From: Caprella mutica
Lineage: Eukaryota; Arthropoda; Malacostraca; Amphipoda; Caprellidae
NCBI GenBank assembly: GCA_947561585.1
Contig: CANNZV010002570.1
Span: forward strand, 1 to 64,000
DNA: 64,000 nt
Reading direction: 5' to 3'
Positions 25,703-57,727 of this stretch are shown piece after piece. Below the pieces are notes generated by a model that saw only the letters and a list, made by a program, of their open reading frames with translations, searched no databases and was not told the DNA's origin. Numbering within the stretch: the first letter of the stretch is position 1; every line of letters begins with the position of its first letter. Made by a program: the position numbers and the translations under genes.

Positions 25703-26817
25703 CGTGACCGGACAATTGCCACCCGCGGATAATTGCCACCTCCGGACAATTGTCACCCAATTATTTTGTTATAAGGCCTCTTAACTTTAAAAATGTTCAT
25801 AAAATATGTGTATTATTTTTGTACGATTAATTATTATTTCACCTTTGATATTTTTTATAGAATTAATAATCTGTGAAAAAATTAATTGGCTTAAAATTGT
25901 AGATGCCTGGTGTTTAAAGGGGCAGTAGTCATTTTTTGTTTAAAATTTTTTAATGTCAAGTGATTGTTCAGAAAAAATAAGGTATTCGTGTAAAATTGCA
26001 ATGTTCAATAAAATATAATAATTGAAATATCTCATTTTATATATAATTAATTTCTTAACAAATGCTAACGGTAGATGGCGCCACAATCAGTGGCGCCATC
26101 TTGTAAACAAACAACTGATATAAGTTTCTAGCCAGATTGTAGCTCAAGTGAAGAGATGGCTTTATTTTTAAAACTCTGCCTTCTTATTTTCGAATTCACA
26201 TAATCTTCTCACCATTTTGACGCAACAAAGGTTGATTACTGCATACATACATAAATTAATATGAAAACAACAAACATACTCACGTACATACTAATAAGTG
26301 CAAATGATTCCGCTAGGTGTCGCTAATTTTATTATATACTTTCTATATGAACATTTCAAATATAAACGAGCATTCAAATATTACTTAATGAAATATTCTG
26401 AATCGATTTAAAACCAATTTGGGGATTGTTTTATTTTTACTTTACTATCCCTTTCAGAAAATCGATTAGTGTAAATCCTGGAAAAGTTATAGACGAAGGG
26501 AATTAAACAATTTTTAATCGTTCTAAACTAGTGGTATAAAGATTAGATAACATAAGACTTAAAATATATAAGATTTGAAAAGCACATAAAGAAACCAAAT
26601 AATAATATTTTTTTATCTTATAATGTATATAATTATTCATTAATCATACAACAATAATATACATATTTTATCACCATTTTTGAAGTTAAGAGGCCTGATT
26701 TTAATTATTTGGGTGGCAATTGTCCGCGGGTGGTAATTGTCCGGGTGGCAATTGTCCGGGGCTGGCAATTATCCGCGGGTGGCAATATTGTCCGCGGGTG
26801 GCAATTGTCCTAGCACC
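25703..26817. mobile_element. Tandem-repeat-TIR element with 8-bp target duplication
   Basis: The element starts CGTGACCGGACAATTGCC and ends GGCAATTGTCCTAGCACC. ATATTTTT flanks both sides (25695-25702 and 26818-26825). The left arm has about three CACCCGCGGACAATTGC units, and the right arm (26710-26815) about six in inverse orientation. The inverse pair AGGCCTCTTAACTT (about 25772) and AAGTTAAGAGGCCT (26682-26697) extends the TIRs past the arrays. A compact hairpin, GATGGCGCCAC and its inverse, lies near 26071-26101. The interior has no gene. The termini share GGTGNNNGGAC with the elements at 10.7 and 57.0 kb. Confidence 0.85.
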
Positions 26818-36384: not shown

Positions 36385-37505
36385 GAAAATAGGAACAGCA
36401 GCTCATAAAGCAGGTGGACGTTAAGGGCCATGTCACACAAACGTTTTTGGAGCGTTTTCAACGCTTCAAAAGCGTTTCGTAACATGCATACATATGAAAT
36501 GAGTTTAACAATTTTTCAGAGTCAAAATCTCTGTGAAAACGCTGTGAGAACGCTGTGAAAAACGATGGTAAGACATTGTTGCCCTAAGGATGTCTTCGTT
36601 ACACAATAATTCTTATATTTTTTGAAATATCTTCATTTTTCTGAACAGCAACTCATAAAGCAGGTGTGAGTATGCAGAAGTTGTCTTAGTTACACACTTT
36701 GTATGTGCGAGTATGCAGAAGTTGTCTTAGTTACACACTTTGTATACAAAAATATCGCTGATGTAATTTCGATTGAAATATCTTCATTTTTCTGAACAGC
36801 AACTCATAAAGCAGGTGTGAGTATGCAGAAGTTGCTTAGTTACACACTTTGTATACAAAAATATCGCTGATGTAATTTCGATTGAAATATCTTCATTTTT
36901 CTGAACAGCAACTCATAAAGCAGGTGTGAGTATGCAGAAGTTGTCTTAGTTACACACTTTGTATACAAAAATATCGCTGATGTAATTTCGATTGAAATAT
37001 CTTCATTTTTCTGAACAGCAACTCATAAAGCAGGTGTGAGTATGCAGAAGTTGTCTTAGTTACACACTTTGTATACAAAAATATCGCTGATGTAATTTCG
37101 ATTGAAATATCTTCATTTTTCTGAACAGCAACTCATAAAGCAGGTGTGAGTATGCAGAAGTTGTCTTAGTTACACACTTTGTATACAAAAATATCGCTGA
37201 TGTAATTTCGATTGAAATATCTTCATTTTTCTGAACAGCAACTCATAAAGCAGGTGTGAGTATGCAGAAGTTGTCTTAGTTACACACTTTGTATACAAAA
37301 ATATCGCTGATGTAATTTCGATTGAAATATCTTCATTTTTCTGAACAGCAACTCATAAAGCAGGTGTGAGTATGCAGAAGTTGTCTTAGTTACACACTTT
37401 GTATACAAAAATATCGCTGATGTAATTTTGATTGAAATATCTTCATTTTTCTGAACAGCAACTCATAAAGCAGGTGCAAGTATGCAGAAGTTGTCTTAGT
37501 GACAA
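36385..37505. repeat. 110-bp satellite array, about eight nearly identical units
   Basis: CTGAACAGCAACTCATAAAG recurs at 36641, 36792, 36901, 37011, 37121, 37231, 37341 and 37451, so the later spacings are 109-110 bp. Units are nearly identical, with two changes in the last unit, which points to recent amplification. The first interval (151 bp) contains an internal duplication of GAGTATGCAGAAGTTGTCTT. A diverged single copy at about 36394 may be the ancestor. No open frame was found. Confidence 0.92.
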
Positions 37506-38561: not shown

Positions 38562-39818
38562 CAGGGTGAGGCGTAAGTTTGGAAGCAATTTTTCAAACAT
38601 TAATATAATTCTTAAAAATAAGTTCCTAAGCAGGTGATAGGGTTTGAACTTTAGTAGAGACACTACTACATACAAAAATTTAGTCAATTCAAAAATGTCA
38701 GACAAAAGAGAAGCTATTATTGCTCTACACCGTGCCGGGAAGTCAGATTCCGTCATTTCAAAGACTCTCTCAATAGCGAGATCGACTGTTTGGAAGTGTG
38801 TGAAGCGTTTTAATGAGAGAGGAGACTTGACTGATCGTCCAAGAAGTGGTAGACAACGTTCACAACGCACCAAACAACTGATAAAATGTGCCCGAGAGAA
38901 GATCAGGAGGAACCCGAAAAGGTCAATACGATTGTTAGCCAAAACAGCTAATGTGAGTCCCGGAACAATGAGAAGAGTTGTCAAAGAAGACCTAAAGATG
39001 TGTTCTTTCACCTCCAAAAGAGACAGACTCTGTCAGAAGCTGTAAAGAAAAAGAGATTTGAGAGAAGCAAAGCACTTCTGAGAGAATTGAAGTCTGGCAC
39101 GGCTGGTGAAATTGTTTGGTCTGACGAAAAAATTTTCACAGTGGAAATGGCTCACAACCGGAGGAATGACAGAATAATTGGTAAAAGTGCAAAAGACATC
39201 CCATACAACCAAAAAACTGTCCACAGAACCATGAAACCTGCTTCAGTAATGGTCTGGGCCCCCGTTTCAGAAACTTGGAGATCTCCTTTGATTTTTGTGG
39301 AACAAGGCGCCAAAATCAATGCTAAATGTTATATTGAGAATATTTTGACGCCAATGTTGGAGTCAGCTAAGGATCACTTCGGTAAGGACACTCTATGGAC
39401 ATTTCAGCAAGAAATTCACATACTGCAAATGTCACTCAAAACTGGTGCTATGACCATCTTCCACGGTTTTGGTCCAAAGAAATGTGGCCTCCCTGCTCCC
39501 CAGATGTTAATCCTATGGACTTTTCGGTATGGTCCATTCGTGAATCAAAGGCCTGTGGTAAATTCCATCGCAGTGTGGATGATTTAAAGCGTTCGCTCCA
39601 GAGATCTTGGAAGGAAATTTCACAAGAACAGTTGCGTGCCGCAGTAGTAGGAGTTCGGAGGAGATTTGAGGCTGTTATTAAAAACAAGGGGGGACATTTT
39701 GAATAAATTTATGATTTTTGAATTCTTAAAACCCTTATGTAATAATACATAACTGTAAATTATTAAATATATTTTTAATATGCACTTTCATTTGCTTCCA
39801 AACTTACGCCCCACCCTG
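38562..39818 (+). mobile_element. maT-type (DD37D) Tc1/mariner transposon, copy 2
   Basis: The left end CAGGGTGAGGCGTAAGTTTG and inverted right end CAGGGTGGGGCGTAAGTTTG differ at one position. TA flanks both ends (38560-38561 and 39819-39820). It is about 40 bp shorter than copy 1, mostly through deletions in the leader and near the 3' end. Sequence identity to copy 1 is high across the gene, but the inactivating lesions differ. Confidence 0.93.
38695..39706 (+). pseudogene. maT-family transposase, two frameshifts, second catalytic Asp lost
   Basis: The start is the ATG at 38695 (MSDKREAI). The N-terminal helix-turn-helix half is intact to about 39010, where a base missing from a C-run (CACCTCC instead of CACCCTCC) shifts the frame. 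The next segment carries WSDEKIFTVE. A 7-base deletion at about 39412 then removes the Asp-Gly of the QQDGVTSH block, destroying the second catalytic residue. The last segment has PPCSPDVNPMDFSVW and ends at TAA 39704-39706. Here the Cys codon that is TGA in copy 1 is intact, so the two copies broke independently. Confidence 0.9.
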
Positions 39819-41574: not shown

Positions 41575-42459
41575 GAACAGGTATCATAACAAAATCACAA
41601 CTTGATCAGTGGGTAAACCATAATTTCTTTAATCAATAGCTATCGGATTTAACAAAATGTAAACAATATTCACTAATTCTAGATAAATACATTCCATATA
41701 ATATTTTTACCTTTAAACCTAATTATTTATCGAAAAGAAATCTGGCAATCGATAGCAGAGATTTTAGAGAATACACTGTAAAAATTGTAAATCAAATTTA
41801 CACTCTTAACTATAAAAAAATAAGTCAAAGGAAAACTCAACCAGTTTTTTTTCTATTTATTCCTATCTAAATAAATGTTAGCGTAGCGCTTTGTTATGAT
41901 TTCGGCAATCAGCTGTTCAAACTGTAAACGCCAGAATGTACCAGCCTTGATAGATTGCCTTGATTAGAGTCCCTGGGTGCTAAAAGAAAACAAATGTATA
42001 TTTTTAATATAAGTTTAATATAAATCATCACTGAAACTTTGAAGTTTCAGTGAAAGAAAATTGATACATATTTTTAATATAAATCTCTTTCAAAAAATGA
42101 TAAACATTTCATAAATGAAAAAAAAGTATTTCATGATCCAAATTACAACAGATCGGGGTCTTCCATTCACTAGACAGTTACAAGTTAGAGCCCCTGGGCA
42201 CCACAACAAAATAAACGGCATCTCTAACCTTCCTTTAAGTAATTAAATTTATAAACTCTTCAAAATTGAGAAGAAAAAAGAACATTGTATAAGAATAAAC
42301 AACAATAAAAAATAATTAAATTTCCTTCATTTTCTAATGGTACCAAACAATTTTTAGTTTTAGGAACATAATTTTCTCCTTGGAAAATATTACTCGGGAA
42401 TCATATTCTAATTAGGTTACAGAAAGTTTTAAATATAGTATTCATTGGAATGAGCTTGT
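41575..42459. other. AT-rich DNA downstream of the SET-recombinase gene
   Basis: This is the 3' flank of the minus-strand gene ending at 42460 and should hold its 3' UTR. I see no firm poly(A) signal or other gene. Confidence 0.4.
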
Positions 42460-42938
42460 TTATTGTTTGTTTAGTCGACGATAATTATATATCGCAGTTC
42501 GAACCTTGTGTACCTTCTGTGGAGTACTGAAATTCCTGAGTGAAGGGAGAACACCTGATTTTACTAATGGAACTATATTTTTTGATACAGGCCTAGGACT
42601 TTCATTTATACGATCATTTATATAGAAATGGAATTTATCCTTTAGAACTTTTTTTTCTCGATCTGAGAATTTCATTCTCTTACGTTTGGGGGTGACGCAA
42701 TCTCTCTCAGAAGAGTGGAATGTCTCATCACTTGACGTAGAATGGTCTAATTCTCTGGTTTCATAGCTCGGCGAAGGATCGTCTACTTCTCTGGTTTCAT
42801 AGCTCGGAGAAGGATCGTCTACTTCTCTGGTTTCATAGCTCGGAGAAGGATCGTCTACTTCTCTGGTTTCATAGCTCGGAGAAGGATCGTCTAATTCTCT
42901 TCGAAGCGGTGATTCCATGGCGAAATAGCTTTCCAAAT
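42460..42938 (-). CDS. Last exon: repeat-bearing C-terminal domain
   Basis: The acceptor TTTTGACAG precedes ATTTGG, and the preceding exon's G completes GAT (Asp). The exon encodes about 159 residues and stops with TAA at 42460-42462. An acidic tandem repeat comes first, four copies of DDPSPSYETREV encoded by a 36-bp minisatellite (about 42747-42900). Then follow a basic segment KRKRMKFSDREKKVL and a C-terminal region SLRNFSTPQKVHKVRTAIYN plus YRR. The last part resembles the SANT/Myb-like tails seen after Crypton-type recombinase domains, but that assignment is tentative. The repeat suggests a disordered, length-variable linker. Confidence 0.75.
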
Positions 42939-43508
42939 CTGTCAAAATAATTTGATGTAAATTAAATGTGGCGTGTATTTTAAGACCGTTTCAGTCATCA
43001 AAGGTGAAATTATAGAAGGGATCTCTGAATAGAAATTACACAGGAGAGCAGCTTGATAGATGTCAATAATTTTATGAGTATTTGAAGATTTGTACGAAAC
43101 ACTAATCTGACCCATGGTTTTGATTTACAATCACCATTCACTGACAGGTCTTATTCAAGCAGAAAAGCTACAGTGTAAAAAGTAACAAAAATATCACTGA
43201 TCCCCTGAATATTAAATGAAGATATGATAGTTCATACTCAACACACAAATCTTATGACCTCGTAGTTAAAGAGCATAACTCTAGCACTATCTCTAAATGT
43301 CTATAACTACAATTAGAGATCAAAAATGATAAACCTGAATGAATTCAAGTACAAGAAATTAGAAATAAATAACCGCCGCAATCATATCATTCATACCCTA
43401 CTAGTTCACATGGGCTCTGGATATTAATGTAATCCGTGAATATTGAGAGAAGATTGATGTTACAGGATGATAAAGAGTCATAAGACACATTACATTACAT
43501 TTACGTAC

Positions 43509-44145
43509 CATTTAGATTCTCCTCATTTAAATTCTCTGTATTTCCACTTTCTTGGTCCATAGACGTAGAGGTAATTTCCTTTTGCATCTTATCCGCAATG
43601 ATGATAGAATTGAGCGCTGGTGGACATCTGTATATGGTTTCATGGATGTCTTTCGAATGGCTGAAGATTTTGAGCAGACTTCCATGCTCTTTTTCAGTTA
43701 AGTTGGCTCCCTCCATGATCATGGCGACTAAATGCCTGTTTTTTGTCGCATTAATAGAACCAACTCCATATTTTGTACACACAAAGTCTAGATCATGCCA
43801 CCCTGAGCTGTGGTTAGTGCTGTTTAAAGATGCAAATACAAAATTATTTTCTTTTGGGATTCCAGATAATTTTCTGATATTATCATTAATCATATATTCA
43901 AAAAAGCGACCATATTCACGGTTGACCACAATGTCTGCATTCTCTTTGCCATTTTTGGCTGGGACATAGAAGATCAAATTATCTTTGAGGATGTTTTTAT
44001 GTGCATCAGACAGTTTTACTATATGTTCGGTGTTTGTGTAAGTACCCGCTATTCCTCTTCTGCAGTGTTCAGTTGTAAGTCTGCAAACTTCTTCCCCCCT
44101 CCTTGCATTCTTAAGAGTCAAGTATGCAAACATCAGACGTCGAAT
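43509..44145 (-). CDS. Tyrosine recombinase (Crypton-like) catalytic exon
   Basis: The acceptor TGTCTTTTCAG precedes ATTCGACG and the donor is G|GTACGT. The 637 nt encode 212 residues. Motifs fit a tyrosine recombinase fold. NARRGEEVCRLT (residues 13-24) holds the first-box arginine. TKNRHLVAM (134-142) matches the TxRKHxAT-like second box. FSHSKDIHETIYR (161-173) matches the GHxxxxHxxYYR block, with His163 and the candidate nucleophile Tyr172. The usual Gly before that His is Ser. Such domains cut and rejoin DNA through a phosphotyrosine intermediate. Retained R, H and Y with no stops suggest recent function or domestication under selection. Family placement is by motif recall only. Confidence 0.78.
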
Positions 44146-44392
44146 CTGAAAAGACATTTATGTTGAATAGCTAAAATGAAGAATAGATTAGCTAACAAGT
44201 TTGATTTAGTTCGCTAAAAAAATTACTTTTCTTATATTAACATATACATCTATAAGAAAATTTATTTCCCACTTCTAATTTTACGCTATAATGAAAAATT
44301 AATATTAATTATTAAAAGTTACACTTTTCTCACTGAAGTGAAATGATATTTACAACTATACACATTGAATGCGTGAATCAGTGTGATCCTAC

Positions 44393-45381
44393 CTTGATGT
44401 AGGATTTCCCATCAGCAGGCAATTCTTCTCCATATTTTAGCAACGTCTGTAATTCATTTGTTACAGATCGTACCAATTCGCATAATATATCTTTAGCAGG
44501 AATATTTGCAGGTACTCTAGTTTTGTCTTGACGCTTGATACTGATGGAATCTAGTGCCTTCTTCCTTCTTGATTTCCAGAACATATTGGATGTTTTTTGG
44601 AATTCGTTCAGTTTTACTGTTAAATCTTTCTCTCCGTCTATTGTGGTGAGAACTGAGGCGATGTCACAAGTACACCTTATTATTTCATAATAATATAGCA
44701 CCTGATTTTTCTGTTCCTCACAAATATTTTCTATGATATCAGTTAAAATTTCAATTTTTCCCACTGTCATCATATCAATAAGATTGGCTTGGCCTTTGAC
44801 TTGTTCTTTGAATTTACCAAAAATTAATGCTAATCCTCGCAAATGCTTTCTAACTCTCTTGGCCGTTTCGAAAGGTTTTCTTTCATTCATCACGTTTGCG
44901 AAGTACTGCTTCCCAATTCGCAACATCCAATCGGAATCTCTAATTAATTTACCTAATTCATCATTGCGTAAGGTACTGATCAGTTTCGAGTATTCCGATT
45001 GGCCCTTATCATCCAATCTGTTGAATTCATTAGTCTTCATTTTGGCGACACATTTGTGTCTCGAAGAATTTGATTTGAGGATAAAAGCATAACAGTTGGC
45101 ACATTGTATCACATCTTCAGAGGAGCATTTTCTTTTGGTCATTATAGGAAAATTCCCGTCTTCCCTTTTACGTAAGTAGTTATATTTTTCAATACCTTTA
45201 TTTTTCAGTTTGGTGAACTCAAGAGTTCTTTTTTTAGGAGATAAAGTAAAGAGGTGATTTGTTTCTTGAAAATGAACTGTTTTGAGGTGGCGCATTATAT
45301 CTGCGACCACCTTATCGCAGTACAGACAAGGTCGCGGAACTCTTCTAGATTTTGAATTGATAGAAGGTTTTGGCCTCAGAC
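44393..45381 (-). CDS. Zinc-finger and core-binding exon upstream of the recombinase
   Basis: The acceptor TTTTGTTCTCAG precedes GTCTGAGG, and the array exon's terminal G completes GGT. The donor is AAG|GTAGGA. The 989 nt encode about 330 residues without a stop. Cys19, Cys22, His32 and His37 (PCLYCDKVVADIMRHLKTVH) form a C2H2-like finger. Cys94, Cys97, His109 and Cys111 (CANCYAFILKSNSSRHKC) form a second zinc-binding knuckle. The segment IRDSDWMLRIGKQYFAN and RVRKHLRGLALIF resembles the helical N-terminal part of Crypton-type recombinases. Codon use and length are what one expects of real coding sequence, unlike the repeat-derived frames elsewhere. Confidence 0.8.
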
Positions 45382-45385
45382 CTGA

Positions 45386-46266
45386 GAACAAAACGATAAT
45401 TATAGCAAAAGTATCAATCTGTATTGCTAACTATATAAAAAAAAATTTCTTTAATTCGATCTTTCCCACTTGACGACCCCACCAAATTTGATTCAAATTA
45501 TTTTTTTATATGTATTTTTGTCCATAGAGATTGTTTAATGTTTTCCAACTTTTTTGAGTTGGGTCTGGTAATAGTGATAAATAAATGCCATTTTGTGTTT
45601 AAAATCTTGGTTCTCTAAACCAATATTTGAATCTAGTTAAATAATTTCATATGTATAAAAAGAGAACTGTACCGTCATTTGCCTTTTTTATTACTCACTC
45701 AATCATGCTATTTTATTTGTTAATAATTAGCTCATTATTGTGGCAAGAGAAGATGATATTCTATGACTTTGGGACTCAAAATTTAGTTTTATATATAACC
45801 AAAAATCATTGTAATTAACCTATTACAATATATAAAAACAAGAAATGAAGTTTTAGGTATAAAATTAAAAAGTGGAAAAAATCTATATTTTTTAATATTT
45901 TGGTTATATTCAACTCATTTGTGGCGGATGAAGATTATTTAGCAGAGCAGGCCAGAGCCATATAATTTATTATCTAATTTCATCTATTACGAATAATATA
46001 AATGAAAAATGAAAATTTTAATAAATGATCATATTCATAAAATGGTGGGTTTTCACTATTTTTAAAATTTTCAAGTCTCTTGTGGCGCATGAAAGAATTG
46101 GTTTAGAGAACCATAATTTTTAACACAAAATGGCATTTATTTATCAGTATTACCAGACCCAACTCAAGAAGTAGAAAAAACGCTCCACCCCATTACACAT
46201 ATACCAGCATTGAAGTAATAAATTTAAAATATCACGGAACTGGAAATATATTCGATATATGTATGA
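45386..46266. repeat. Foldback pair in the large intron
   Basis: A ~85-bp sequence at 45541-45630, including GAGTTGGGTCTGGTAATA and AATGCCATTTTGTG, recurs inverted at 46085-46180. The arms are about 90% alike by eye. It is probably a MITE or decayed TIR element. No termini or target duplication were fixed. Confidence 0.6.
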
Positions 46267-46267
46267 C

Positions 46268-48854
46268 GGTTCTAGGACAACTCGCCACCGGACAATTCGC
46301 CGCGTGATTTATGTCTTGCCGGTGTATACATCATTAACATATATTTGAAAATATTATAAATTTGAACAATGATTAATTTCTATACGCTCAAGACAAATTT
46401 CAATTTTTTAGTTTCTTGTTATATTATGGGATTATAATTATTGGGATTATTTCAGGCTGCAAAAGATATTAGAGCTATTAATATAAAATTAGAAGCATTT
46501 AACGTCTGCTTCGAAATGAAGGGCTTTCTAGTTGACGTCAAAAGAAATTTAAATACAAAGACAGGAAGAAAAAATCAGAAAGCAAAGTTACTGTTTGAGC
46601 AAAGGCACAAACCACCAATCCGTGACATACTCATGGATATAGAAAAGCTACTTCGTGGATGCAATCTTTTACCAAGGAATTATATAAAATAATTATATAC
46701 ACAAGCAAAGGTGACTGCACTCACGAATAGAAGAGAAAAATAAAGAGGTGATAGTAAATGTAATTCATTAGCCTACCTAAGACAAATATCTAAGACTTTG
46801 TAGTTCAATAACCTTTATTCGCAATAATGTACTAGTTTTAAACTGGAGTAATTTTTTATATAAGACATTAAACGTGTTAAAATACACCTGAAATTGTTTA
46901 TTTTTCAATAAAAAGTTATTTTTATCAAAATACTTTAAAAATCGAACGAATAAAATATCATTGTTAATTTACAACACACAGTACGTTTATATAATAGTTA
47001 AAAAACAGTATATTTAACTTGTGAAATGTGGAAAAGAAAACATTTTCAAATACTGCTAAGAAAATTAATTAATTTACAACACGCAGTTTATATTTAAAAT
47101 ATTTATTATAAATTAATGGTGTGTACGACATTTGTTTTGGCGGCGAATTCCAAACCGAGAGTTGTACTAACGGCGAGTTGTCCTAACGGCGAGTTGTCCT
47201 AACGGCGAGTTGTCCTAACGGCGAGTTGTCCTAACGGCGAGTTGTCCTAACGGCGAGTTGTCCTAACGGCGAGTTGTCCTAACGGCGAGTTGTCCTAACG
47301 GCGAGTTGTCCTAACGGCGAGTTGTCCTAACGGCGAGTTGTCCTAACGGCGAGTTGTCCTAACGGCGAGTTGTCCTAACGGCGAGTTGTCCTAACGGCGA
47401 GTTGTCCTAACGGCGAGTTGTCCTAACGGCGAGTTGTCCTAACGGCAAATTGTCCTAACGGCAAATTGTCCTAACGGCAAATTGTCCTAACGGCAAATTG
47501 TCCTAACGGCAAATTGTCCTAACGGCAAATTGTCCTAACGGCAAATTGTCCTAACGGCAAATTGTCCTAACGGCAAATTGTCCTAACGGCAAATTGTCCT
47601 AACGGCAAATTGTCCTAACGGCAAATTGTCCTAACGGCAAATTGTCCTAACGGCAAATTGTCCTAACGGCAAATTGTCCTAACGGCAAATTGTCCTAACG
47701 GCAAATTGTCCTGACGGCAAATTGTCCTAACGGCAAATTGTCCTAACGGCAAATTGTCCTAACGGCAAATTGTCCTAACGGCAAATTGTCCTAACGGCAA
47801 ATTGTCCTAACGGCAAATTGTCCTAACGGCAAATTGTCCTAACGGCAAATTGTCCTAACGGCAAATTGTCCTAACGGCAAATTGTCCTAACGGAGAGCTG
47901 TCCTAACGGCAAATTGTCCTAACGGAGAGCTGTCCTAACGGCGAATTGTCCTAACGGCGAATTGTCCTAACGGAGAGCTGTCCTAACGGCGAATTGTCCT
48001 AACGGAGAGCTGTCCTAACGGCGAATTGTCCTAACGGAGAGCTGTCCTAACGGAGAGCTGTCCTAACGGCGAATTGTCCTAACGGCGAATTGTCCTAACG
48101 GCGAATTGTCCTAACGGAGAGCTGTCCTAACGGCGAATTGTCCTAACGGAGAGCTGTCCTAACGGCGAATTGTACTCATGGAGAGCTGTCCTAACGGCGA
48201 ATTGTACTCATGGAGAGCTGTCCTAACGGCGAATTGTACTCATGGAGAGCTGTCCTAACGGCGAATTGTACTCATGGAGAGCTGTCCTAACGGCGAATTG
48301 TACTCATGGAGAGCTGTCCTAACGGCGAATTGTACTCATGGAGAGCTGTCCTAACGGCGAATTGTACTCATGGAGAGCTGTCCTAACGGCGAATTGTACT
48401 CATGGAGAGCTGTCCTAACGGCGAATTGTACTCATGGAGAGCTGTCCTAACGGCGAATTGTACTCATGGAGAGCTGTCCTAACGGCGAATTGTACTCATG
48501 GAGAGCTGTCCTAACGGCGAATTGTACTCATGGAGAATTGTACTCATGGAGAATTGTACTCATGGAGAATTGTACTCATGGAGAATTGTACTCATGGAGA
48601 ATTGTACTCATGGAGAATTGTACTCATGGCGAATTGTACTCATGGCGAATTGTACTCATGGCGAATTGTACTCATGGTGAATTGTACTCATGGCGAATTG
48701 TACTCATGGCGAATTGTACTCATGGCGAATTGTACTCATGGCGAATTGTACTCATGGCGAATTGTACTCATGGCGAATTGTACTCATGGCGAATTGTACT
48801 CATGGCGAATTGTACTCATGGCGAATTGTACTCATGGCGAATTGTCCTGTCACC
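46268..48854. mobile_element. Tandem-repeat-TIR element with a hugely expanded right arm
   Basis: The left end reads GGTTCTAGGACAACTCGCC and the right end GAATTGTCCTGTCACC, i.e. the GGTGNNNGGAC terminus inverted. The left arm has only about two units, whereas the right arm has about 105 units of 16 bp (47150-48850). The flanks ATGTATGA and ATATATGA match at seven of eight positions, next to an extra C at the left. It lies in the intron between the last array exon and the zinc-finger exon. The frame at 46441-46692 (FQAAKDIRAINIKLEAFN) is internal and may be a coding remnant I cannot place. Confidence 0.75.
47150..48850. repeat. 16-bp minisatellite with ordered variant blocks
   Basis: Units run first as GGCGAGTTGTCCTAAC (about 18), then GGCAAATTGTCCTAAC (about 30). 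A mixture of GGAGAGCTGTCCTAAC and GGCGAATTGTCCTAAC follows. A 32-bp higher-order unit with GCGAATTGTACTCATG comes next (about 12), then GGAGAATTGTACTCAT and finally GGCGAATTGTACTCAT. The HGELYSW peptides read from it are artefacts. The block order records successive local expansions. Confidence 0.95.
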
Positions 48855-48859
48855 ATATA

Positions 48860-49329
48860 TGAACGGTCAGGTCATTGATCAATCATGAAGTGTGTAGTAT
48901 AACAAACTAGCGGATACAACAAACTACATTACAGTTTCCTGTAAAAAATTATATTGTTTGAGTAATTTCGATGAAAACACGAGTTTTTTAAATACTTCTC
49001 AATCCTTCAGTAATAGATAGGAAATAAATAACTTTGAACACTCATATCTCAACCAGTATTAGTTTCCACAAAAAACGTTTTTATTTTAACTATGGACAAG
49101 AATGCATAAAAAAATTAATTAAAATTAAATCTGGTGTAGGTAGTCAAATGGGAAAGATCCACCTGTATTATTGCCAAGTATATAAAAGAAAATCATCAAA
49201 TAGAAATAGTATATATATATATATATATATAATTCTTAAAAGGAATAATTTATCCATAAAATCTGATACCGAGGTAGCTACTAATATTCATTATTTTCCA
49301 TTATAGTTTCCAATTTATATTACTCCAAA
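48860..49329. other. AT-rich intronic DNA
   Basis: This is the intron between array exon copy 1 and the MULE-like element. AATCATGAAGTGTG at about 48880 recurs at about 62590, suggesting another dispersed repeat. A (TA)n run is at 49209-49231. Confidence 0.45.
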
Positions 49330-52300
49330 ATATAGGAGCTTCTACTGACTCTACACATAAACTTCATAGATTTACCTTTCTGATTGATGTCCTCAGTTAG
49401 AGTGCCACCAGTGAAGAAAGAACATTGCGGGGGGTCAACCAGATCGTGAGAACAACTCCCAGGAGAAGCTAAAAAAATAAGAGCATGTCAGTGGATTTGT
49501 GATCATCTATCACCATATGCTACTACTGACTATGCACATGACAAATGTTCTCATAAGTACAGAGGAACTCTAAACTTCATAGATTTACCTTTCTGATTAA
49601 TGTTCTCAGTTAGAGTGCCACCAGTGAAGAAAGAACATTGCAGGGGGTCAACCAGATCGTGAGAACTCCCAGGAGAAGCTAAAAAAATAAGACCATGTCA
49701 GTGGATTTGTGATCATCTATCACCATATGCTACTACTGACTATGCACATGACAGATGTTTTCATAAGTACAGAGGAACTCTAAACTTCATAGATTTACCT
49801 TTCTGATTAATGTCCTCAGTTAGAGTGCCACCAGTGAAGAAAGAACATTGCGGGGGGTCAACCAGATCGTGAGAACAACTCCCAGGAGAAGCTAAAAAAA
49901 TAAGAGCATGTCAGTGGATTTGTGATCATCTATCACCAAATGCTACTACTGACTATACTCATAACAGATGTTCTCATAAGTACAGAGGAACTCTAAACTT
50001 CATAGATTTACCTTTCTGATTAATGTCCTCAGTTAGAGTGCCACCAGTGAAGAAAGAACCTTGCAGGGGGTCAACCAGATCGTGAGAACTCCAAGGAGAA
50101 GCTAAAAAATAAGAGCATGTCAGTGGATTTGTGATCATATATCACCATATGCTACTACTGACTATACACATAACAGATGTTCTCATAAGTACAGAGGAAC
50201 TCTAAACTTCATAGATTTACCTTTCTGATTAATGTCCTCAGTTAGAGTGCCACCAGTGAAAAAGGAACATTGCGGGGGGTCAACCATATCGTGAGAACAA
50301 CTCCCAGGTGAAGCTAAAAAAATAAGACCATGTCAGTGGATTTGTGATCACCTACCATCATATGCTACTAATGACTATACACATAACAGATGTTCTCATA
50401 AGTACAGAGGAACTCTAAACTTCATAGATTTACCTTTCTGATTAATGTCCTCAGTTAGAGTGCCACCAGTGACGATAGAAAATTGCGGGGGGTCAACCAG
50501 ATCGTGAGAACTCCCAGGAGAAGCTAGAAAAAATAAGAGCATGTCAGTGGATTTGTGATCACCTATCACCATATGCTACTACTGACTATGCACATAACAG
50601 ATGTTCTCATAAGTACAGAGGAACTCTAAACTTCATAGATTTACCTTTCTGATTAATGTCCTCAGTTAGAGTGCCACCAGTGAAGAAAAAACAATGCAGG
50701 GGGGTCAACCAGATCGTGAGAACAACTCCCAGGAGAAGCTAAAAAAATAAGAGCATGTCAGTGGATTTGTGATCATATATCACCATATGCTACTACTGAC
50801 TATGCACATGACAGATGTTCTCATAAGTACAGAGGAACTCTAAACTTCATAGATTTACCTTTCTGATTAATGTCCTCAGTTAGAGTGCCACCAGTGAAGA
50901 AAGAACATTGCGGGGGGTCAACCAGATCGTGAGAACAACTCCCAGGAGAAGCTAAAAAAATAAGAGCATGTCAGTGGATTTGTGATCATATATCACCATA
51001 TGCTACTACTGACTATGCACATGACAGATGTTCTCATAAGTACAGAGGAACTCTAAACTTCATAGATTTACCTTTCTGATTGATGTCCTCAGTTAGAGTG
51101 CCACCAGTGAAGAAAGAACATTGCAGGGGGTCAACCAGATCGTGAGAACTCCCAGGAGAAGCTAAAAAAATAAGAGCATGTCAGTGGATTTGTGATCACC
51201 TACCATCATATGCTACTAATGACTATACACATAACAGATGTTCTCATAAGAACAGAGGAACTCTAAACTTCATAGATTTACCTTTCTGATTAATGTCCTC
51301 AGTTAGAGTGCCACCAGTGAGGAAAGAACAATGCGGGGGGTCAACCAGATCGTGAGAACAACTCCCAGGAGAAGCTAAAAAAATAAGAGCATGTCAGTGG
51401 ATTTGTGATCATATATCACCATATGCTACTACTGACTATACACATAACAGATGTTCTCATAAGTACAGAGGAACTCTAAACTTCATAGATTTACCTTTCT
51501 GATTAATGTCCTCAGTTAGAGTGCCACCAGTGAAAAAGGAACATTGCGGGGGGTCAACCATATCGTGAGAACAACTCCCAGGAGAAGCTAAAAAAATAAG
51601 AGCATGTCAGTGGATTTGTGATCATATATCACCATATACTACTACTGACTATGCACATAAAAGATGTTCTCATAAGTACAGAGGAACTCTAAACTTCATA
51701 GATTTACCTTTCTGATTGATGTCCTCAGTTAGAGTGCCACCAGTGAAGAAAGAACATTGCGGGGGGTCAACCAGATCGTGAGAACTCCCAGGAGAAGCTA
51801 AAAAAATAAGAGCATGTCAGTGGATTTGTGATCACCTACTATCATATGCTACTAATGACTATACACATAACAGATGTTCTCATAAGTACAGAGGAACTCT
51901 AAACTTCATAGATTTACCTTTTTGATTAATGTCCTCAGTTAGAGTGCCACCAGTGACGATAGAACATTGCGGGGGGTCAACCAGATCGTGAGAACTCCCA
52001 GGAGAAGCTAGAAAAAATAAGAGCATGTCAGTGGATTTGTGATCACCTATCACCATATGCTACTACTGACTATACACATAACAGATGTTCTCATAAGTAC
52101 AGAGGAACTCTAAACTTCATAGATTTACCTTTCTGATTAATGTCCTCGGTTAGAGTGCCACCAGTGAAGAAAGAACATTGCGGGGGGTCAACCAGATCGT
52201 GAGAACTCCCAGGAGAAGCTAAAAAAAATAAGAGCATGTCAGTGGATTTGTGATCACCTACCATCATATGCTACTAATGACTATACACATAACAGATGTT

Positions 52301-54190
52301 CTCATAAGTACAGAGGAACTCTAAACTTCATAGATTTACCTTTTTGATTAATGTCCTCAGTTAAAGTGCCACCAGTGACGATAGAACATTGCGGGGGGTC
52401 AACCAGATCGTGAGAACTCCCAGGAGAAGCTAGAAAAAATAAGAGCATGTCAGTGGATTTGTGATCACCTATCACCATATGCTACTACTGACTATGCACA
52501 TAACAGATGTTCTCATAAGTACAGAGGAACTCTAAACTTCATAGATTTACCTTTCTGATTAATGTCCTCAGTTAGAGTGCCACCAGTGACGATAGAAAAT
52601 TGCGGGGGGTCAACCAGATCGTGAGAACAACTCCCAGGAGAAGCTAGAAAAAATAAGAGCATGTCAGTGGATTTGTGATCACCTATCACCATATGCTACT
52701 ACTGACTATACACATAACAGATGTTCTCATAAGTACAGAGGAACTCTAAACTTCATAGATTTACCTTTCTGATTAATGTCCTCGGTTAGAGTGCCACCAG
52801 TGAAGAAAGAACATTGCGGGGGGTCAACCAGATCGTGAGAACTCCCAGGAGAAGCTAAAAAAAATAAGAGCATGTCAGTGGATTTGTGATCACCTACCAT
52901 CATATGCTACTAATGACTATACACATAACAGATGTTCTCATAAGTACAGAGGAACTCTAAACTTCATAGATTTACCTTTCTGATTAATGTCCTCGGTTAG
53001 AGTGCCACCAGTGAAGAAAGAACATTGCGGGGGGTCAACCAGATCGTGAGAACTCCCAGGAGAAGCTAAAAAAAATAAGAGCATGTCAGTGGATTTGTGA
53101 TCACCTACCATCATATGCTACTAATGACTATACACATAACAGATGTTCTCATAAGTACAGAGGAACTCTAAACTTCATAGATTTACCTTTTTGATTAATG
53201 TCCTCAGTTAGAGTGCCACCAGTGACGATAGAACATTGCGGGGGGTCAACCAGATCGTGAGAACTCCCAGGAGAAGCTAGAAAAAATAAGAGCATGTCAG
53301 TGGATTTGTGATCACCTATCACCATATGCTACTACTGACTATGCACATAACAGATGTTCTCATAAGTACAGAGGAACTCTAAACTTCATAGATTTACCTT
53401 TCTGATTAATGTCCTCAGTTAGAGTGCCACCAGTGACGATAGAAAATTGCGGGGGGTCAACCAGATCGTGAGAACAACTCCCAGGAGAAGCTAGAAAAAA
53501 TAAGAGCATGTCAGTGGATTTGTGATCACCTATCACCATATGCTACTACTGACTATACACATAACAGATGTTCTCATAAGTACAGAGGAACTCTAAACTT
53601 CATAGATTTACCTTTCTGATTAATGTCCTCGGTTAGAGTGCCACCAGTGACGATAGAACATTGCGGGGGGTCAACCAGATCGTGAGAACAACTCCCAGGA
53701 GAAGCTAGAAAAAATAAGAGCATGTCAGTGGATTTGTGATCACCTACCATCATATGCTACTAATGACTATACACATAACAGATGTTCTCATAAGTACAGA
53801 GGAACTCTAAACTTCATAGATTTACCTTTTTGATTAATGTCCTCAGTTAGAGTGCCACCAGTGACGATAGAACATTGCGGGGGGTCAACCAGATCGTGAG
53901 AACTCCCAGGAGAAGCTAGAAAAAATAAGAGCATGTCAGTGGATTTGTGATCACCTATCACCATATGCTACTACTGACTATACACATAACAGATGTTCTC
54001 ATAAGTACAGAGGAACTCTAAACTTCATAGATTTACCTTTTTGATTAATGTCCTCGGTTAGAGTGCCACCAGTGAAGAAAGAACATTGCGGGGGGTCAAC
54101 CAGATCGTGAGAACTCCCAGGAGAAGCTAAAAAAAATAAGAGCATGTCAGTGGATTTGTGATCACCTACCATCATATGCTACTACTTACT
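49330..54190 (-). repeat. ~211-bp tandem repeat, 23 units, each exon plus intron
   Basis: Twenty-three units follow at 209-214-bp spacing. On the minus strand each contains acceptor TTATTTTTTTAG, a 90/93-nt exon, donor GTAAATCTATG, and ~118-121 nt of intron. The intron has ACTGAC (a good branch-point candidate) about 20 nt before the AG. Introns are as conserved as exons, so homogenisation by unequal exchange or gene conversion is continuing. A roughly two-unit higher-order pattern is visible (GAAGAAAG versus GACGATAG forms) in 51.9-54.1 kb. Confidence 0.97.
49376..54126 (-). CDS. Tandem array of 23 phase-1 exons (30/31 residues each)
   Basis: Exons in plus coordinates: 49376-49468, 49589-49678, 49799-49891, 50012-50101, 50221-50313, 50434-50523, 50645-50738, 50859-50951, 51072-51161, 51282-51374, 51495-51587, 51708-51797, 51918-52007, 52129-52218, 52340-52429, 52551-52643, 52765-52854, 52976-53065, 53187-53276, 53398-53490, 53612-53704, 53826-53915, 54037-54126. 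Each reads SPGS(C)SHDLVDPPQ then CSFFTGGTLTEDINQK, starting after a phase-1 G (Ala across the junction). Nine are 93 nt and thirteen are 90 nt. Copy 50645 is 94 nt (an extra G) and would frameshift. Variants include FF/IV, C/F, P/L and L/M. They also include silent changes (ACT/ACC, ATT/ATC, CAG/CAA, CTA/TTA, TCT/TCA). The function of the peptide is unknown to me. Whether exons are used together or one at a time is open. Confidence 0.8.
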
Positions 54191-54315
54191 AATAATAACT
54201 AACTAAGTTCTCAATTAGAGATCAGATTCAGAGATACTTCAGCTAAAAGAGTTCAAATAGATAATCTTAAAAAAAGAGTGCTAATACACCTTCCTATTAG
54301 TTGCCATAAACATAC

Positions 54316-54357
54316 CTAATTCGAATGGCACTCCAAAACGAACTGCATCAGGTAAAT
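54316..54357 (-). CDS. 42-nt linker exon between SET domain and exon array
   Basis: The acceptor CTATTTCACAG precedes ATTTACC and the donor is TTAG|GTATGT. Phase 1 at both ends gives D-LPDAVRFGVPFEL, joining upstream to the SET exon and downstream to the array. The small size makes it less certain than its neighbours, but both splice sites are good and the phases fit. Confidence 0.6.
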   Translation of the reverse strand: MYLMQFVLECHSN

Positions 54358-54766
54358 CTGTGAAATAGATATTTTTCTTTCATATATTAACTTTGTATTG
54401 CAATCAAGTATTACAGCAATTCATCTTCCACATTGAAAAATTCAAAGAGCTAAAATTCAATAAAAAAATTCATTATAAGTAGATATATGACTAACTATAA
54501 ACTATACTTTTATTTGTTTTTAGTGAACAATAATGTCTTCAGATGACTTTTGTTGCAGAAAACTTTAAATTCTATTTTTCTTAATTAAGAGCTCCCTCTC
54601 AGTTTAAGCATCAAAGCTAAAAAATTATAATCGCTAACAATAACAGTGCAGCATTTTACCAAGAGATTAATTTAAAATGGAAGTAATATAACTCGTTTGA
54701 AAAAATATACTCTACGGAAAAAATTTGAAAATCATCATTAAAGCAATAAAAGTGGTATGAATTTAC

Positions 54767-54797
54767 CTCTTTGAAAGATTACCATTCCTGGCTCCAT
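54767..54797 (-). CDS. Possible alternative first exon or 21-nt micro-exon
   Basis: On the minus strand ATGGAGCCAGGAATGG opens MEPGMVIFQR and meets AGAG|GTAAAT after a phase-1 G, which is compatible with the 54357 exon. It could start a shorter product lacking the SET domain. Alternatively GCCAG|GAATGG inside it could serve as an acceptor for a symmetric 21-nt exon. The evidence is only phase and splice-site fit. Confidence 0.3.
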
Positions 54798-54799
54798 CG

Positions 54800-55705
54800 A
54801 GATATTAAATAAATTGTAAATAATTGGCATTGTAATGAATAAACTTGAAAATCTGAAAACTGAAACCTGTAATCAAAGATATAGTATTATTTATCCACAC
54901 TTTCATTAGATACAAAGGTTTAGTAGAATTCTGAGAGTAAATTGAGTTATATTTTGAACTAATTTACCTCGACCTAATAAGGATTGAGCTAAAATTCATA
55001 GTCAAAGCTAACTCGACCGGCAATTAGAAAACTTAGGCCACAAGCCAGACGTGAAGCTAGGAAGACGGAGCGAGCGTGTGCGTTGACAATAAATGAATGT
55101 AATTTAGCCCTAAAAAAGGCAAGCGCAAGGTGTGCACACGATGGCTAGCGCTGCCAGAAACTTGAAAGCAGGTTTATTACTATGATGTAATATTCTCATT
55201 TTTGTTTGTGCAAGCTTAGCACCTGTCATTCTTGAGTCATTAAGTGATGGTTCTGTAGGACGAGACTTGCACAAGTCACTTGCGACATGATTGAATTTGA
55301 ATCCTGCCACTTGTGCAAGTCTGACTAGTGCAAGTGCAACGTACCATGTGTAATGGGAATATTGAAGACTTTATAACAATTACGATGAATGTAAAGGATA
55401 ATGAGTTTGTTTTTACAAATACATCATTTCGTTTCTTCTTTTGAGATTTTCTTGATGCATATACAAGACAAAAAGCAACCAAAACAAGAACTCATCGTCT
55501 GAACTCGACATAATCACAATTTCAACAAGAGGCTTGTACAAGTATACTTGTATTGTGTGTTGGGCGAAGTGAAATATTCCAATACTTGTGCAAATACTTG
55601 CGCAAGCTTGCATGGACGTGAGTAGCCACCTTTAGTCAGTTCTAGCTATTTGGGATGAATTTCATCCCAAATCAAGAGGCTGAATATAAGTCCCAATGCA
55701 TTCAC
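54800..55705. other. Intronic DNA with ACTTGTGCAAG-type short repeats
   Basis: CTTGTGCAAG and CTTGCGCAAG motifs recur between 55130 and 55620 in both orientations, suggesting a decayed MITE in the intron. No exon was recognised, and the open frames here have no domain. Confidence 0.4.
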
Positions 55706-55709
55706 GTAC

Positions 55710-55906
55710 CTTCATTTTTTTTGCGCCAGGGATAATCTCCACCACCGTAGTCGTACTCAAGCTCTGTAAATGGAAGGATATCTTTAAGCGCGTAGAAGAC
55801 AGGAAAGCTTTGACCTTCTACACGCTCCATCTTGACTTTAACATTTGGATTGCATTTAGAATCATTCATGTAGCGGCAGACATTAGGAGAATTTGATGCA
55901 TCAATC
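55710..55906 (-). CDS. SET domain exon, C-terminal half
   Basis: The acceptor CTTTCTTTACAG precedes GATTGATG and the donor is GAAG|GTACGT. The 197 nt encode IDASNSPNVCRYMNDSKCNP, then NVKVKMERVEG, FPVFYALKDILPFTELEYDY, and GGGDYPWRKKNE. The NDSKCNPNV block stands where KMT5A-type SET domains have NHSKC..N, with His replaced by Asp. ELEYDYGG holds the conserved catalytic-region Tyr and the YDYG motif. SET domains transfer methyl groups from S-adenosylmethionine to protein lysines. Whether this one is active is uncertain given the His change. GDYPWRK after YDYG resembles KMT5A-like proteins that carry recombinase tails. Confidence 0.85.
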
Positions 55907-56374
55907 CTGTAAAGAAAGTTAAATCTGTAGACTAAATGAGATATGGAATAATTGAAATAATATTGGGAATGAATGTTGATTAGTAGCAACCGCTGTTCGA
56001 TAAGCGCACAACCAAATTGAGGTTCATGATCATGAAGTTTACTCTTGTCTACAAATTGAAGTACTTATTACAAAACTACAAAAGAAAAGAGCAATAACAA
56101 GGTGAAATAAGTACTATTTATTAATAAAAAATATATCCTTTAAGATATACCTAGCAGTTTTAGTAAAATGGTGACAAATATATCAACAAAGATATGTACT
56201 GGAACTTGAATACAGATGATGCTAGCAACAAAAAATGGATTGTTAATGAATTGAAGGGTATTTCATAAATTCATGATATAATTGATAGATTTAATATAAT
56301 CCATGATATAGCTGCCACAAATGAGACCAGATGAAAATGTTACATATGCAACTATAAAATTATTCCTGTATTAC

Positions 56375-56510
56375 CATGATTTCGGCTTGCTTATCAATTC
56401 AAAGAGGTATGTAGAGTCACGTTTTTTGGGTTCTTTGAAAATCCTCTGACCTCCATAAAAGTGGATGAAAGATCCCTGACTTATCCTCTTGTTTGATACA
56501 AGGCCCTTCC
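56375..56510 (-). CDS. SET domain exon, N-terminal half
   Basis: The acceptor TTTTATTTCAG precedes GGAAGG and the donor is TCATG|GTAATA. The 136 nt encode GKGLVSNKRISQGSFIHFYG, then GQRIFKEPKKRDSTYLFELI, then SKPKSW. GKG-x(n)-G-F-I-x-F-Y-G-G is the opening S-adenosylmethionine-binding segment of a SET domain (compare KGRGV...GEFVVEYHG). The phase-2 end joins the next exon as TGG (Trp), giving KSWIDAS, the site of the family's YCVDA strand. Confidence 0.85.
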
Positions 56511-57042
56511 CTGAAATAAAAAGATAGCAGAATGTAATATAAATGTTAGTTCTTGTAACTCGCATTCTTCAATAAATAAGGTTACCTTCAAAAAAAGTCG
56601 ACTAGCTATAGCTATATTATATGAAAAAAGTTCATAATTATAATTTTCCAAGCAACTACATCGTAAGTTTCATAAAATTTTTAATGACATCTCAAATTGA
56701 TAACTAAGTTTAATTATTTTCTCACTTATAATTCAGAAAACTAATTATCAAGTTGAGAAGCTTGCAAAATTATTCCATTGAAAAATAAGTATTAGAAAAT
56801 AAATTGAAATTATGAAAAATAGTATTAGCTACCTATGATTTTTTTTTTATTTATTGAGGTGAATTAAATATTTTGTCAATGTTAATTTATAGCTATAAAA
56901 TTAATAGATTGTTTAATAAATTATATTATTTGTAATAAAATAAAATAATATTATTTGTAATATATCTCATCCCTACTAAAATTGCACAAGGATTAGTGTT
57001 TAATCACTAATCAACTACACAGTAATTATAAAATATATTATG

Positions 57043-57410
57043 GGTTCTAGGTCAATTCACCGAAAACACATTCGCAGCAGGACACATTCGCCGAAAAATT
57101 GACAATTATTTACCTAAATAAGGTATACTTATTTTACAGTAAAAAACAGTTAAGTATACATTTTGTCACTATCAAACCTGGACGGGGTGGGAGCAAGCCC
57201 CCCATCCCCCCCAAAACACACCACCCCAACTGGACCACTAACCTAACCTTAGGTGGACTGTATCTCTTTATATTTAAAGCGTATAGTGTTTTTAAATTTT
57301 CTGCGAATGTGTTTTCGGCGAATGTGATTTCAGCGAATGTGATTTCGGCAATTGTGATTTCGACGGAAGTGTTTTCGGCAAATGTGTTTTCGGCAAATGG
57401 ACCGGTCACC
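57043..57410. mobile_element. Small tandem-repeat-TIR element with perfect 8-bp target duplication
   Basis: The element starts GGTTCTAGGTCAATTCACC and ends ATGGACCGGTCACC. ATATTATG flanks both sides (57035-57042 and 57411-57418). The right arm has about six TGTGTTTTCGGCGAA units of ~15 bp and the left about two inverse units. The 368-bp copy sits in the intron between the 57.5-kb exon and the first SET exon. A GC-rich patch (GGGGTGGGAGCAAGCCCCCC) is in its interior. Confidence 0.85.
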
Positions 57411-57493: not shown

Positions 57494-57578
57494 CTTTGAC
57501 ACCACAATCCACCACAAGTAAATGAGAGGGATTCTCATTTTTTGAGATTGCTTCAAGCAGTTTCTCTCTATTTGTAGG
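57494..57578 (-). CDS. Exon upstream of the SET domain
   Basis: The minus strand reads PTNREKLLEAISKNENPSHL then LVVDCGVK, ending AAAG|GTAATA in phase 1. With the next exon this gives VKGKGLVS, the usual run-in to a KMT5A-like SET domain. The acceptor is taken as TTATTGCAG before CCTACA, which keeps the frame open. An alternative AG eleven bases upstream meets a stop in phase 0. It is the most 5' exon I regard as well supported. Confidence 0.7.
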
Positions 57579-57727
57579 CTGCAATAACCTTGAACAAAAG
57601 TAATATTAGAATCTATTCAAATGATGGTAACAAAAATATTAGATATCTAAAATAAATATGCTACATCATCATTGAACTTAGCATATTATTGGAGATAGCA
57701 TGGCTAATTTTAATATTGATATCATAT

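What the first reader, a model, noticed from the sequence alone, without database searches (positions are those of the whole stretch)
49330..54190. A 23-copy tandem exon array in a SET-recombinase gene
Each ~211-bp unit has an acceptor, a 90/93-nt exon and a donor. All exons are phase 1-1, so any number can be joined or skipped without changing frame. They fit the flanking exons in phase. Arrays of this size are known in a few genes that use alternative exons for diversity (Dscam-type) or build repeat proteins. I know of none described in a SET/tyrosine-recombinase gene.
Basis: partly seen in the sequence, partly recalled or inferred. Interest (0 to 1): 0.93.

Follow-up and report, generated by a model that had tools for sequence, protein, structure and literature searches.

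The report
Twenty-three-copy predicted exon array
Inside one predicted gene, probably of an animal, that carries a histone-methylase-type (SET) domain, a 211-base block holding one predicted exon is repeated 23 times, and 22 of the 23 keep the reading frame, so the gene would likely make a protein with a long repeated linker whose length could change as copies are gained or lost; no RNA evidence was available.

Summary
The array is real in this assembly. It holds 23 minus-strand units of about 211 nt (49358-54191), each with an acceptor, a predicted exon and an identical donor. Thirteen exons are 90 nt and nine 93 nt, all open in phase 1-1. Unit 17 is 94 nt (+1 in a C-run) and stops the frame, so "all exons are 1-1" is wrong by one. 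The flanking predicted exons also join in phase 1. The model reads through without the array (825 aa) or with 22 units (1494 aa), but stops at residue 635 with all 23.

The SET domain is supported (Pfam E 3.3e-12; nearest solved relatives SET8/KMT5A). The tyrosine-recombinase label is not: no library matched, and the fold failed.

Best reading: a young exon-plus-intron cassette, amplified by unequal exchange and predicted to encode a near-uniform repeat linker between the SET domain and the C-terminal region. Exon and intron copies differ about equally (4.0%, 4.6%), so coding selection is not shown. Near-identical exons and no docking signal above shuffles argue against Dscam-type choice. Such arrays are known (Tetrahymena LRR genes, schistosome mucins); the host gene and linker position are new as far as searched. 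No transcript, relative or second individual could be examined.

The parts
49358..54191 (-). Tandem array of 23 predicted exons with their introns; 22 complete units of 210-215 nt plus the last exon
   Evidence: TRF 22.8 copies, 95% matches; unit table
54037..54126 (-). First (5'-most) predicted array exon, unit 1, 90 nt, phase 1-1, A-SPGSSHDLVDPPQCSFFTGGTLTEDINQK
49376..49468 (-). Last (3'-most) predicted array exon, unit 23, 93 nt, phase 1-1
50645..50738 (-). Unit 17, 94 nt: one extra base at the C-run, frame lost, stop within the unit
54316..54357 (-). Predicted 42-nt exon just upstream of the array, phase 1-1 (LPDAVRFGVPFEL)
   Evidence: GT-AG, open in phase 1
55710..55906 (-). Predicted exon, second part of the SET domain, ends in phase 1
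   Evidence: Pfam SET 3.1e-8 for the ORF around it, 3.3e-12 joined to the first part
56375..56510 (-). Predicted exon, first part of the SET domain
   Evidence: nearest solved chains SET8/KMT5A
57494..57588 (-). Candidate exon upstream of the SET exons, in phase; weakest part of the model
   Evidence: rule-based search; SET score 48.9 bits when joined, 47.2 without
44393..45381 (-). Predicted 989-nt exon after the array, starts in phase 1; two Cys/His-rich stretches (by eye), then a region without a family match
   Evidence: open across 329 codons, GT-AG; no Pfam family above cut-off
43509..44145 (-).
   Evidence: in phase; no YR match in Pfam, PDB, PHROGs, NCBIfam
42460..42938 (-). Predicted terminal exon with the stop codon; holds its own 36-bp coding repeat (DDPSPSYETREV x4.3, 42745-42900)
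45382..49375 (-). 3994-nt predicted intron after the array; contains a 16/32-bp minisatellite at 47141-48848

Best explanation
This is a 23-copy head-to-tail array of about 211-nt units, each with one predicted exon, lying between the SET-domain exons and the C-terminal exons of one predicted minus-strand gene, and it likely grew by unequal exchange and would encode a repeated linker of variable length. Shown: the array, the identical donors, the shared phase 1, the open frame of the model without the array or with 22 units, the frameshift in unit 17, and the mosaic pattern of variants among copies. Inferred: each exon has the same donor and nearly the same acceptor, so the splicing machinery would treat them alike and most copies would be joined in order, giving up to about 22 repeats of ASPGS(C)SHDLVDPPQCSFFTGGTLTEDINQK between the SET domain and the C-terminal part. 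Because the exons are symmetric, gain, loss or skipping of units changes only the length of the linker, so exchange between misaligned copies would be tolerated. Unit 17 must be skipped, or be a sequence error at a C-run, in any transcript that reaches the C-terminal exons in frame.
For: 23 of 23 identical donors and AG acceptors. 22 of 23 exons open in phase 1 only. The flanking joints fit: 825 aa to the stop without the array, 1494 aa with 22 units. Joining two predicted exons raises the SET match from 34.4 to 47.2 bits, which supports the splice model there. Exchange: units 4 and 8, and 7 and 10, are identical over exon plus intron; 45 of 171 pairs of informative columns show all four combinations; units 1-11 differ less among themselves (7.1 of 215 columns) than units 12-22 (11.3).
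Against: No transcript was available. Exon copies vary about as much as intron copies (pi 0.040 and 0.046; 16 of 93 exon columns without unit 17 and 16 of the first 114 intron columns), and 7 silent against 10 amino-acid changes do not differ from neutral expectation (p 0.18), so coding constraint is not shown. Unit 17 breaks the frame under full inclusion. Minisatellites cover another 7683 nt of this window, so tandem growth here needs no function. No relative of the gene was found, in collections that may hold few animal genomes.
Confidence: 0.55

Rival explanations
1. Passenger array: one exon was caught in a minisatellite-like expansion; the mRNA uses none or only a few units and the rest are spliced over or decay, without function.
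For: About equal exon and intron divergence and no significant excess of silent changes; a frameshifted unit; 59 TRF rows in the window, covering 12517 of 64000 nt with the array; the gene model reads through without the array.
Against: Splice signals and frame are intact in 22 of 23 copies, although the copies are alike enough that decay had little time to show.
Confidence: 0.25
2. Diversity by alternative exons: cells choose one or a subset of the array exons (Dscam-type).
For: Symmetric exons permit skipping; 12 different peptides are encoded, one of them the frameshifted unit.
Against: Exons are about 96% alike; the best pairing of one array intron with either flank is not clearly beyond shuffles (9 of 60 and 4 of 60 shuffles as strong or stronger); equal splice sites give no evident basis for choice; inclusion of several exons is in frame.
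Confidence: 0.08
3. Assembly artefact: copy number or the unit 17 base is wrong.
For: 4.8-kb near-identical array; the unit 17 lesion is one base at a C-run, a typical read-error context (recalled).
Against: The 22 units compared form 20 different sequences (two identical pairs), and variants form blocks; an artefact would not readily create these, though it could alter the count.
Confidence: 0.08
4. Decaying gene: the whole locus is a pseudogene and the array is a by-product.
For: Frameshift in unit 17; the SET motif NHS reads NDS (alignment).
Against: The other predicted exons, 825 codons in sum, are open with GT-AG joints.
Confidence: 0.04

Closest known systems
Tetrahymena LRR genes with tandem 90-bp exon arrays (PMC6564038; abstract and passages seen)
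   Same: Uniform 90-nt exons in a row, one intron phase, a characteristic intron length per species, 1-51 such exons per gene in T. thermophila, growth put down to unequal crossing over.
   Different: There phase 2, thousands of LRR genes, ciliate, exons encode a known repeat; here phase 1, one gene seen, 90/93-nt exons, no known repeat family, array sits between two non-repeat parts of the predicted protein.
Schistosoma mansoni SmPoMuc genes (0-20 tandem 27-bp exons), the 10-3 gene with 81-bp repeats, and micro-exon genes (review PMC4015677; passages seen)
   Same: Symmetric short exons, tandem exon repeats whose number varies, skipping keeps the frame.
   Different: Mucin-type, secreted or gland proteins with reported alternative splicing; here a SET-domain gene without transcript evidence.
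Internal tandem repeats in human duplicated genes (PMC2812944; abstract and passages seen)
   Same: Tandem repeats in genes lengthen low-complexity stretches between domains while keeping the frame in most cases; expansion by slippage or unequal crossover.
   Different: Repeats within exons or at exon-intron boundaries, not whole exon-plus-intron cassettes in the passages seen.
Clusters of mutually exclusive tandem exons (PMC9013439, abstract and case-studies section seen; Dscam itself recalled)
   Same: Many tandem homologous exons in one gene.
   Different: One exon chosen per cluster, from exons that differ in sequence (recalled); here near-identical exons and no docking signal above shuffles.
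KMT5A/SET8 methyltransferases
   Same: Nearest solved relatives of the SET part (best E 2.4e-7; Clr4-type H3K9 enzymes follow at 1.4e-6; 60 of 80 matches listed).
   Different: Predicted gene has an array and an unrelated C-terminal region; NHS motif reads NDS.

Membership tests
Tandem symmetric exon-array genes (general kind) | Three or more consecutive homologous exons, each with its own splice sites | tested here: met
   23 units with AG acceptor and identical donor; exons are predicted, not seen in RNA
Tandem symmetric exon-array genes (general kind) | Length a multiple of three and one phase, fitting the flanking exons | tested here: met
   22 of 23 exons; unit 17 fails
Tandem symmetric exon-array genes (general kind) | Array exons are spliced into mRNA | not testable with these tools
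Tetrahymena-type 90-bp LRR arrays | Exactly 90-bp exons, phase 2, leucine-rich repeats | tested here: not met
   90/93 nt, phase 1; three joined units match no Pfam family above cut-off, no LRR family listed up to E 10
Mutually exclusive exon clusters (Dscam-type) | Diverged alternatives | tested here: not met
   Exon pi 0.040; 12 peptides from 23 exons
Mutually exclusive exon clusters (Dscam-type) | Docking and selector sequences that pair | tested here: inconclusive
   One array intron against both flanks: 9 of 60 and 4 of 60 shuffles as strong or stronger
SET domain (PF00856) | Profile match above the curated cut-off | tested here: met
   47.2 bits, cut-off 22.4
SET domain (PF00856) | Conserved NHS and YDYG motifs | tested here: inconclusive
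   YDYG present; NHS reads NDS (alignment; motif names recalled)
Tyrosine recombinase / Crypton YR | Profile or sequence match to a known YR (phage integrase, DUF3504) | tested here: not met
   Searches list no YR family
Tyrosine recombinase / Crypton YR | R-H-R-Y tetrad (PMC3212892) | tested here: inconclusive
   By eye and from recall only: NARRGE, TKNRH, SHSKDIHETIY; the H of the tetrad would be T; AlphaFold model pLDDT 30.7, unusable

The most novel reading that the evidence does not exclude
A chromatin-modifying SET enzyme is tied to a transposon-derived tyrosine-recombinase (Crypton-type) DNA-binding part by a copy-number-variable tether: the exon array acts as a length dial that differs between alleles or transcripts and sets how far along chromatin the SET domain can reach from the bound site.
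Probability: 0.1. Interest if true: 0.8.

Novelty: new variant of a known kind. Interest (0 to 1): 0.45.

Why it matters
If the exons are used, this is a young, homogeneous exon array caught early, inside a predicted nuclear-type enzyme gene and not in a surface or repeat-domain gene. It would let one test directly how whole exon-plus-intron cassettes spread by unequal exchange, whether splicing copes with 23 nearly equal exons, and whether linker length between two protein parts can vary freely between individuals. The frameshifted unit 17 is a built-in marker: its presence or absence in mRNA tells whether single array exons can be skipped.

Tried and rejected
Single continuous coding minisatellite: rejected, none of 43 ORFs of 90 aa or more lies in the array on either strand. 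Known RNA family: none in the window at gathering scores. Known repeat fold: three joined units match no Pfam family above cut-off (three weak ones below it, best E 0.0078); two designed toroid proteins in PDB reached E 4.8e-9 and 1.7e-6 with no stretch passing on its own, which I take as an artefact of a 31-residue period (not tested further). Mutually exclusive splicing by RNA docking: not above shuffles. Homologues: none at E 1e-3 for the joined C-terminal part (6261 candidates) or for the SET-plus-three-units part of a shortened model (4890 candidates; both searches admit only proteins of 0.55-1.75 times the query length); in viral contigs one pattern match but no relative of the 43510-44145 exon and no exact match of an array-exon pattern; none of that pattern in prokaryote contigs. 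These collections probably hold few animal genomes (inferred), so absence means little. Structure of the putative recombinase exon: no confidence, so no fold search was run. Other copies in the window: no match of the model at E 1 outside 42400-56600, and only chance-level matches of the unit (10 rows of 12-22 nt, E 1.1 or worse) outside the array.

Literature: searches for a SET/recombinase gene gave 2, 0, 4 and 1 papers, none on such a gene by title or start of abstract (listings only). Searches covered exon arrays, micro-exon genes and Cryptons.

One search used exon ends that were off by a base for some flanking exons; one search corrects them.
Full report
What is there. Tandem Repeats Finder places one array at 49358-54191, period 211, 22.8 copies, 95% matches. 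Read on the minus strand, 23 units each hold an AG acceptor behind a T-rich tract, a predicted exon and the donor AAG|GTAAAT, which is identical in 23 of 23; the 30 nt before the exon occur in five closely related forms. Exon lengths are 90 nt in 13 units, 93 nt in 9 and 94 nt in 1; the 93-nt form has three extra bases, which add a Cys codon. The 22 introns between them are 121 nt (11), 120 nt (10) or 119 nt (1). Exons, from 5' to 3' on the minus strand, run from 54126-54037 to 49468-49376. In 22 of 23 exons only one frame is open, and it is the one that follows a phase-1 donor: ASPGS(C)SHDLVDPPQCSFFTGGTLTEDINQK.

The exception. Unit 17 (50738-50645) has CCCCCCTGC where 19 units have CCCCCCGC and 3 have CCCCCTGC. 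The frame is lost and a stop follows within the unit. It may be a real lesion or a read error at a C-run; the tools cannot tell.

The gene. With GT-AG joints at every step the predicted exons fit in phase: 56510-56375 and 55906-55710 (SET), 54357-54316 (42 nt, phase 1-1), the array, 45381-44393, 44145-43509 and 42938-42460 with the stop codon. Joined without the array the model is 825 aa to the stop; with 22 units (17 left out) it is 1494 aa; with all 23 it stops at residue 635. A candidate exon further upstream, 57588-57494, also fits and raises the SET match slightly. The start of the gene was not found.

SET part. The ORF around one exon gives Pfam SET 34.4 bits; joined to the other predicted exon 47.2 bits, E 3.3e-12. 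This gain supports the splice joint. Nearest solved chains are SET8/KMT5A, best E 2.4e-7, followed by H3K9 enzymes at 1.4e-6 (60 of 80 matches listed). The motif NHS reads NDS here, YDYG is kept; activity is open.

C-terminal part. The 701 residues match no Pfam family above cut-off; the exon at 43509-44145 has no PDB match better than E 0.95 and none in PHROGs or NCBIfam; a single-sequence AlphaFold model has mean pLDDT 30.7. By eye the exon holds NARRGE, TKNRH and SHSKDIHETIY, which resemble tyrosine-recombinase boxes (recalled); Crypton recombinases have an R-H-R-Y tetrad (PMC3212892, abstract and passages), whose H would be T here. I treat the label as a lead.

Is it more than chance? Of 5000 shuffled units read as arrays, 237 give a symmetric exon open in some frame and 74 one open in phase 1. 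A similar rule finds one weak candidate in 1350 nt between the SET exon and the 42-nt exon and one in 3987 nt after the array; 22 of 23 array exons pass it. The rules were set after seeing the unit.

How it arose. Units 4 and 8 are identical over exon plus intron, as are 7 and 10, so the 22 units compared form 20 different sequences; differences average 7.1 of 215 columns within units 1-11, 11.3 within 12-22 and 13.3 between the halves. Of 171 pairs of informative columns 45 show all four combinations, as expected when copies exchange parts, though repeated mutation can add to this. Both edges lie inside introns: the last 74 nt of the upstream intron (about 9 nt beyond the TRF edge) and the first 18 nt of the downstream intron align to the array intron, so the repeated block was an exon with intron parts. 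This fits unequal exchange, which is inferred. The window is rich in other tandem repeats: 12517 of 64000 nt with the array, 7683 without, so the region, or the genome, is prone to tandem growth.

Does it code? The evidence is mixed. For: open frame and splice signals in 22 of 23 units, and the fit to the flanks. Against: exon and intron copies differ about alike (pi 0.040 and 0.046; 16 of 93 exon columns, unit 17 left out, and 16 of the first 114 intron columns, the last seven left out); without unit 17, 10 amino-acid and 7 silent changes against an expected silent share of 28% give p 0.18. The copies may simply be too young for selection to show. No transcript data were at hand.

Why not exclusive choice. 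The exons are near-identical and encode 12 peptides, one of them the broken one. The donors are the same. Inclusion of several exons keeps the frame. Pairing of one array intron with the upstream or downstream flank is matched or beaten by 9 of 60 and 4 of 60 shuffles, which is weak evidence either way for the downstream flank. I therefore expect in-order inclusion of many units, or none, not choice of one.

Relation to known systems. Tetrahymena LRR genes hold tandem arrays of exactly 90-bp exons, 1 to 51 per gene in T. thermophila, with one intron phase (2) and typical intron lengths, put down to unequal crossing over (PMC6564038, abstract and passages). Schistosome polymorphic mucin genes hold 0-20 tandem 27-bp exons and the 10-3 gene 81-bp repeats; micro-exon genes have symmetric exons (review PMC4015677, passages). 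In human duplicated genes, internal tandem repeats lengthen low-complexity regions between domains, mostly in frame (PMC2812944, abstract and passages). The present array would work like these but was not shown to belong to any of the named gene families. New, as far as searched, are the host gene and the position between a SET domain and a further non-repeat part. Four searches for a SET/recombinase gene in print found none (listings only).

Limits. The species is unknown ('probably an animal' is inferred from the introns, the SET type and Tc1/mariner-like remnants); protein searches gave no relatives and the search of the window's own genome did not complete. Copy number rests on one assembly.

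Noticed in passing
42745-42900: A second, purely exonic repeat in the same predicted gene: 36 bp x 4.3 at 97%, encoding DDPSPSYETREV in the terminal exon.
   Followed up: partly
47141-48848: A 16/32-bp minisatellite (53.4 copies of a 32-nt period, 97%) in the predicted intron right after the exon array; sequence types run in blocks along it (seen).
   Followed up: no
36705-37504: 110-bp tandem repeat, 7.3 copies, 98% matches, 5 kb beyond the end of the predicted gene.
   Followed up: no
5095-6008 and 38641-39706: Two similar broken transposase-like stretches on the + strand. 38641-39045 has helix-turn-helix matches, incl. the Sleeping Beauty HTH model below cut-off; 5247-6008 and 39386-39706 match no Pfam family. 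Tc1/mariner-like is inferred.
   Followed up: partly
25708-26810, 47141-48848, 57297-57399: Minisatellites with related-looking motifs (..GGCAATTGTCC.. / ..GGCGAATTGTCC.. / ..CGGCGAATGTG..) at separate places in the window, as if one motif seeds arrays repeatedly.
   Followed up: no
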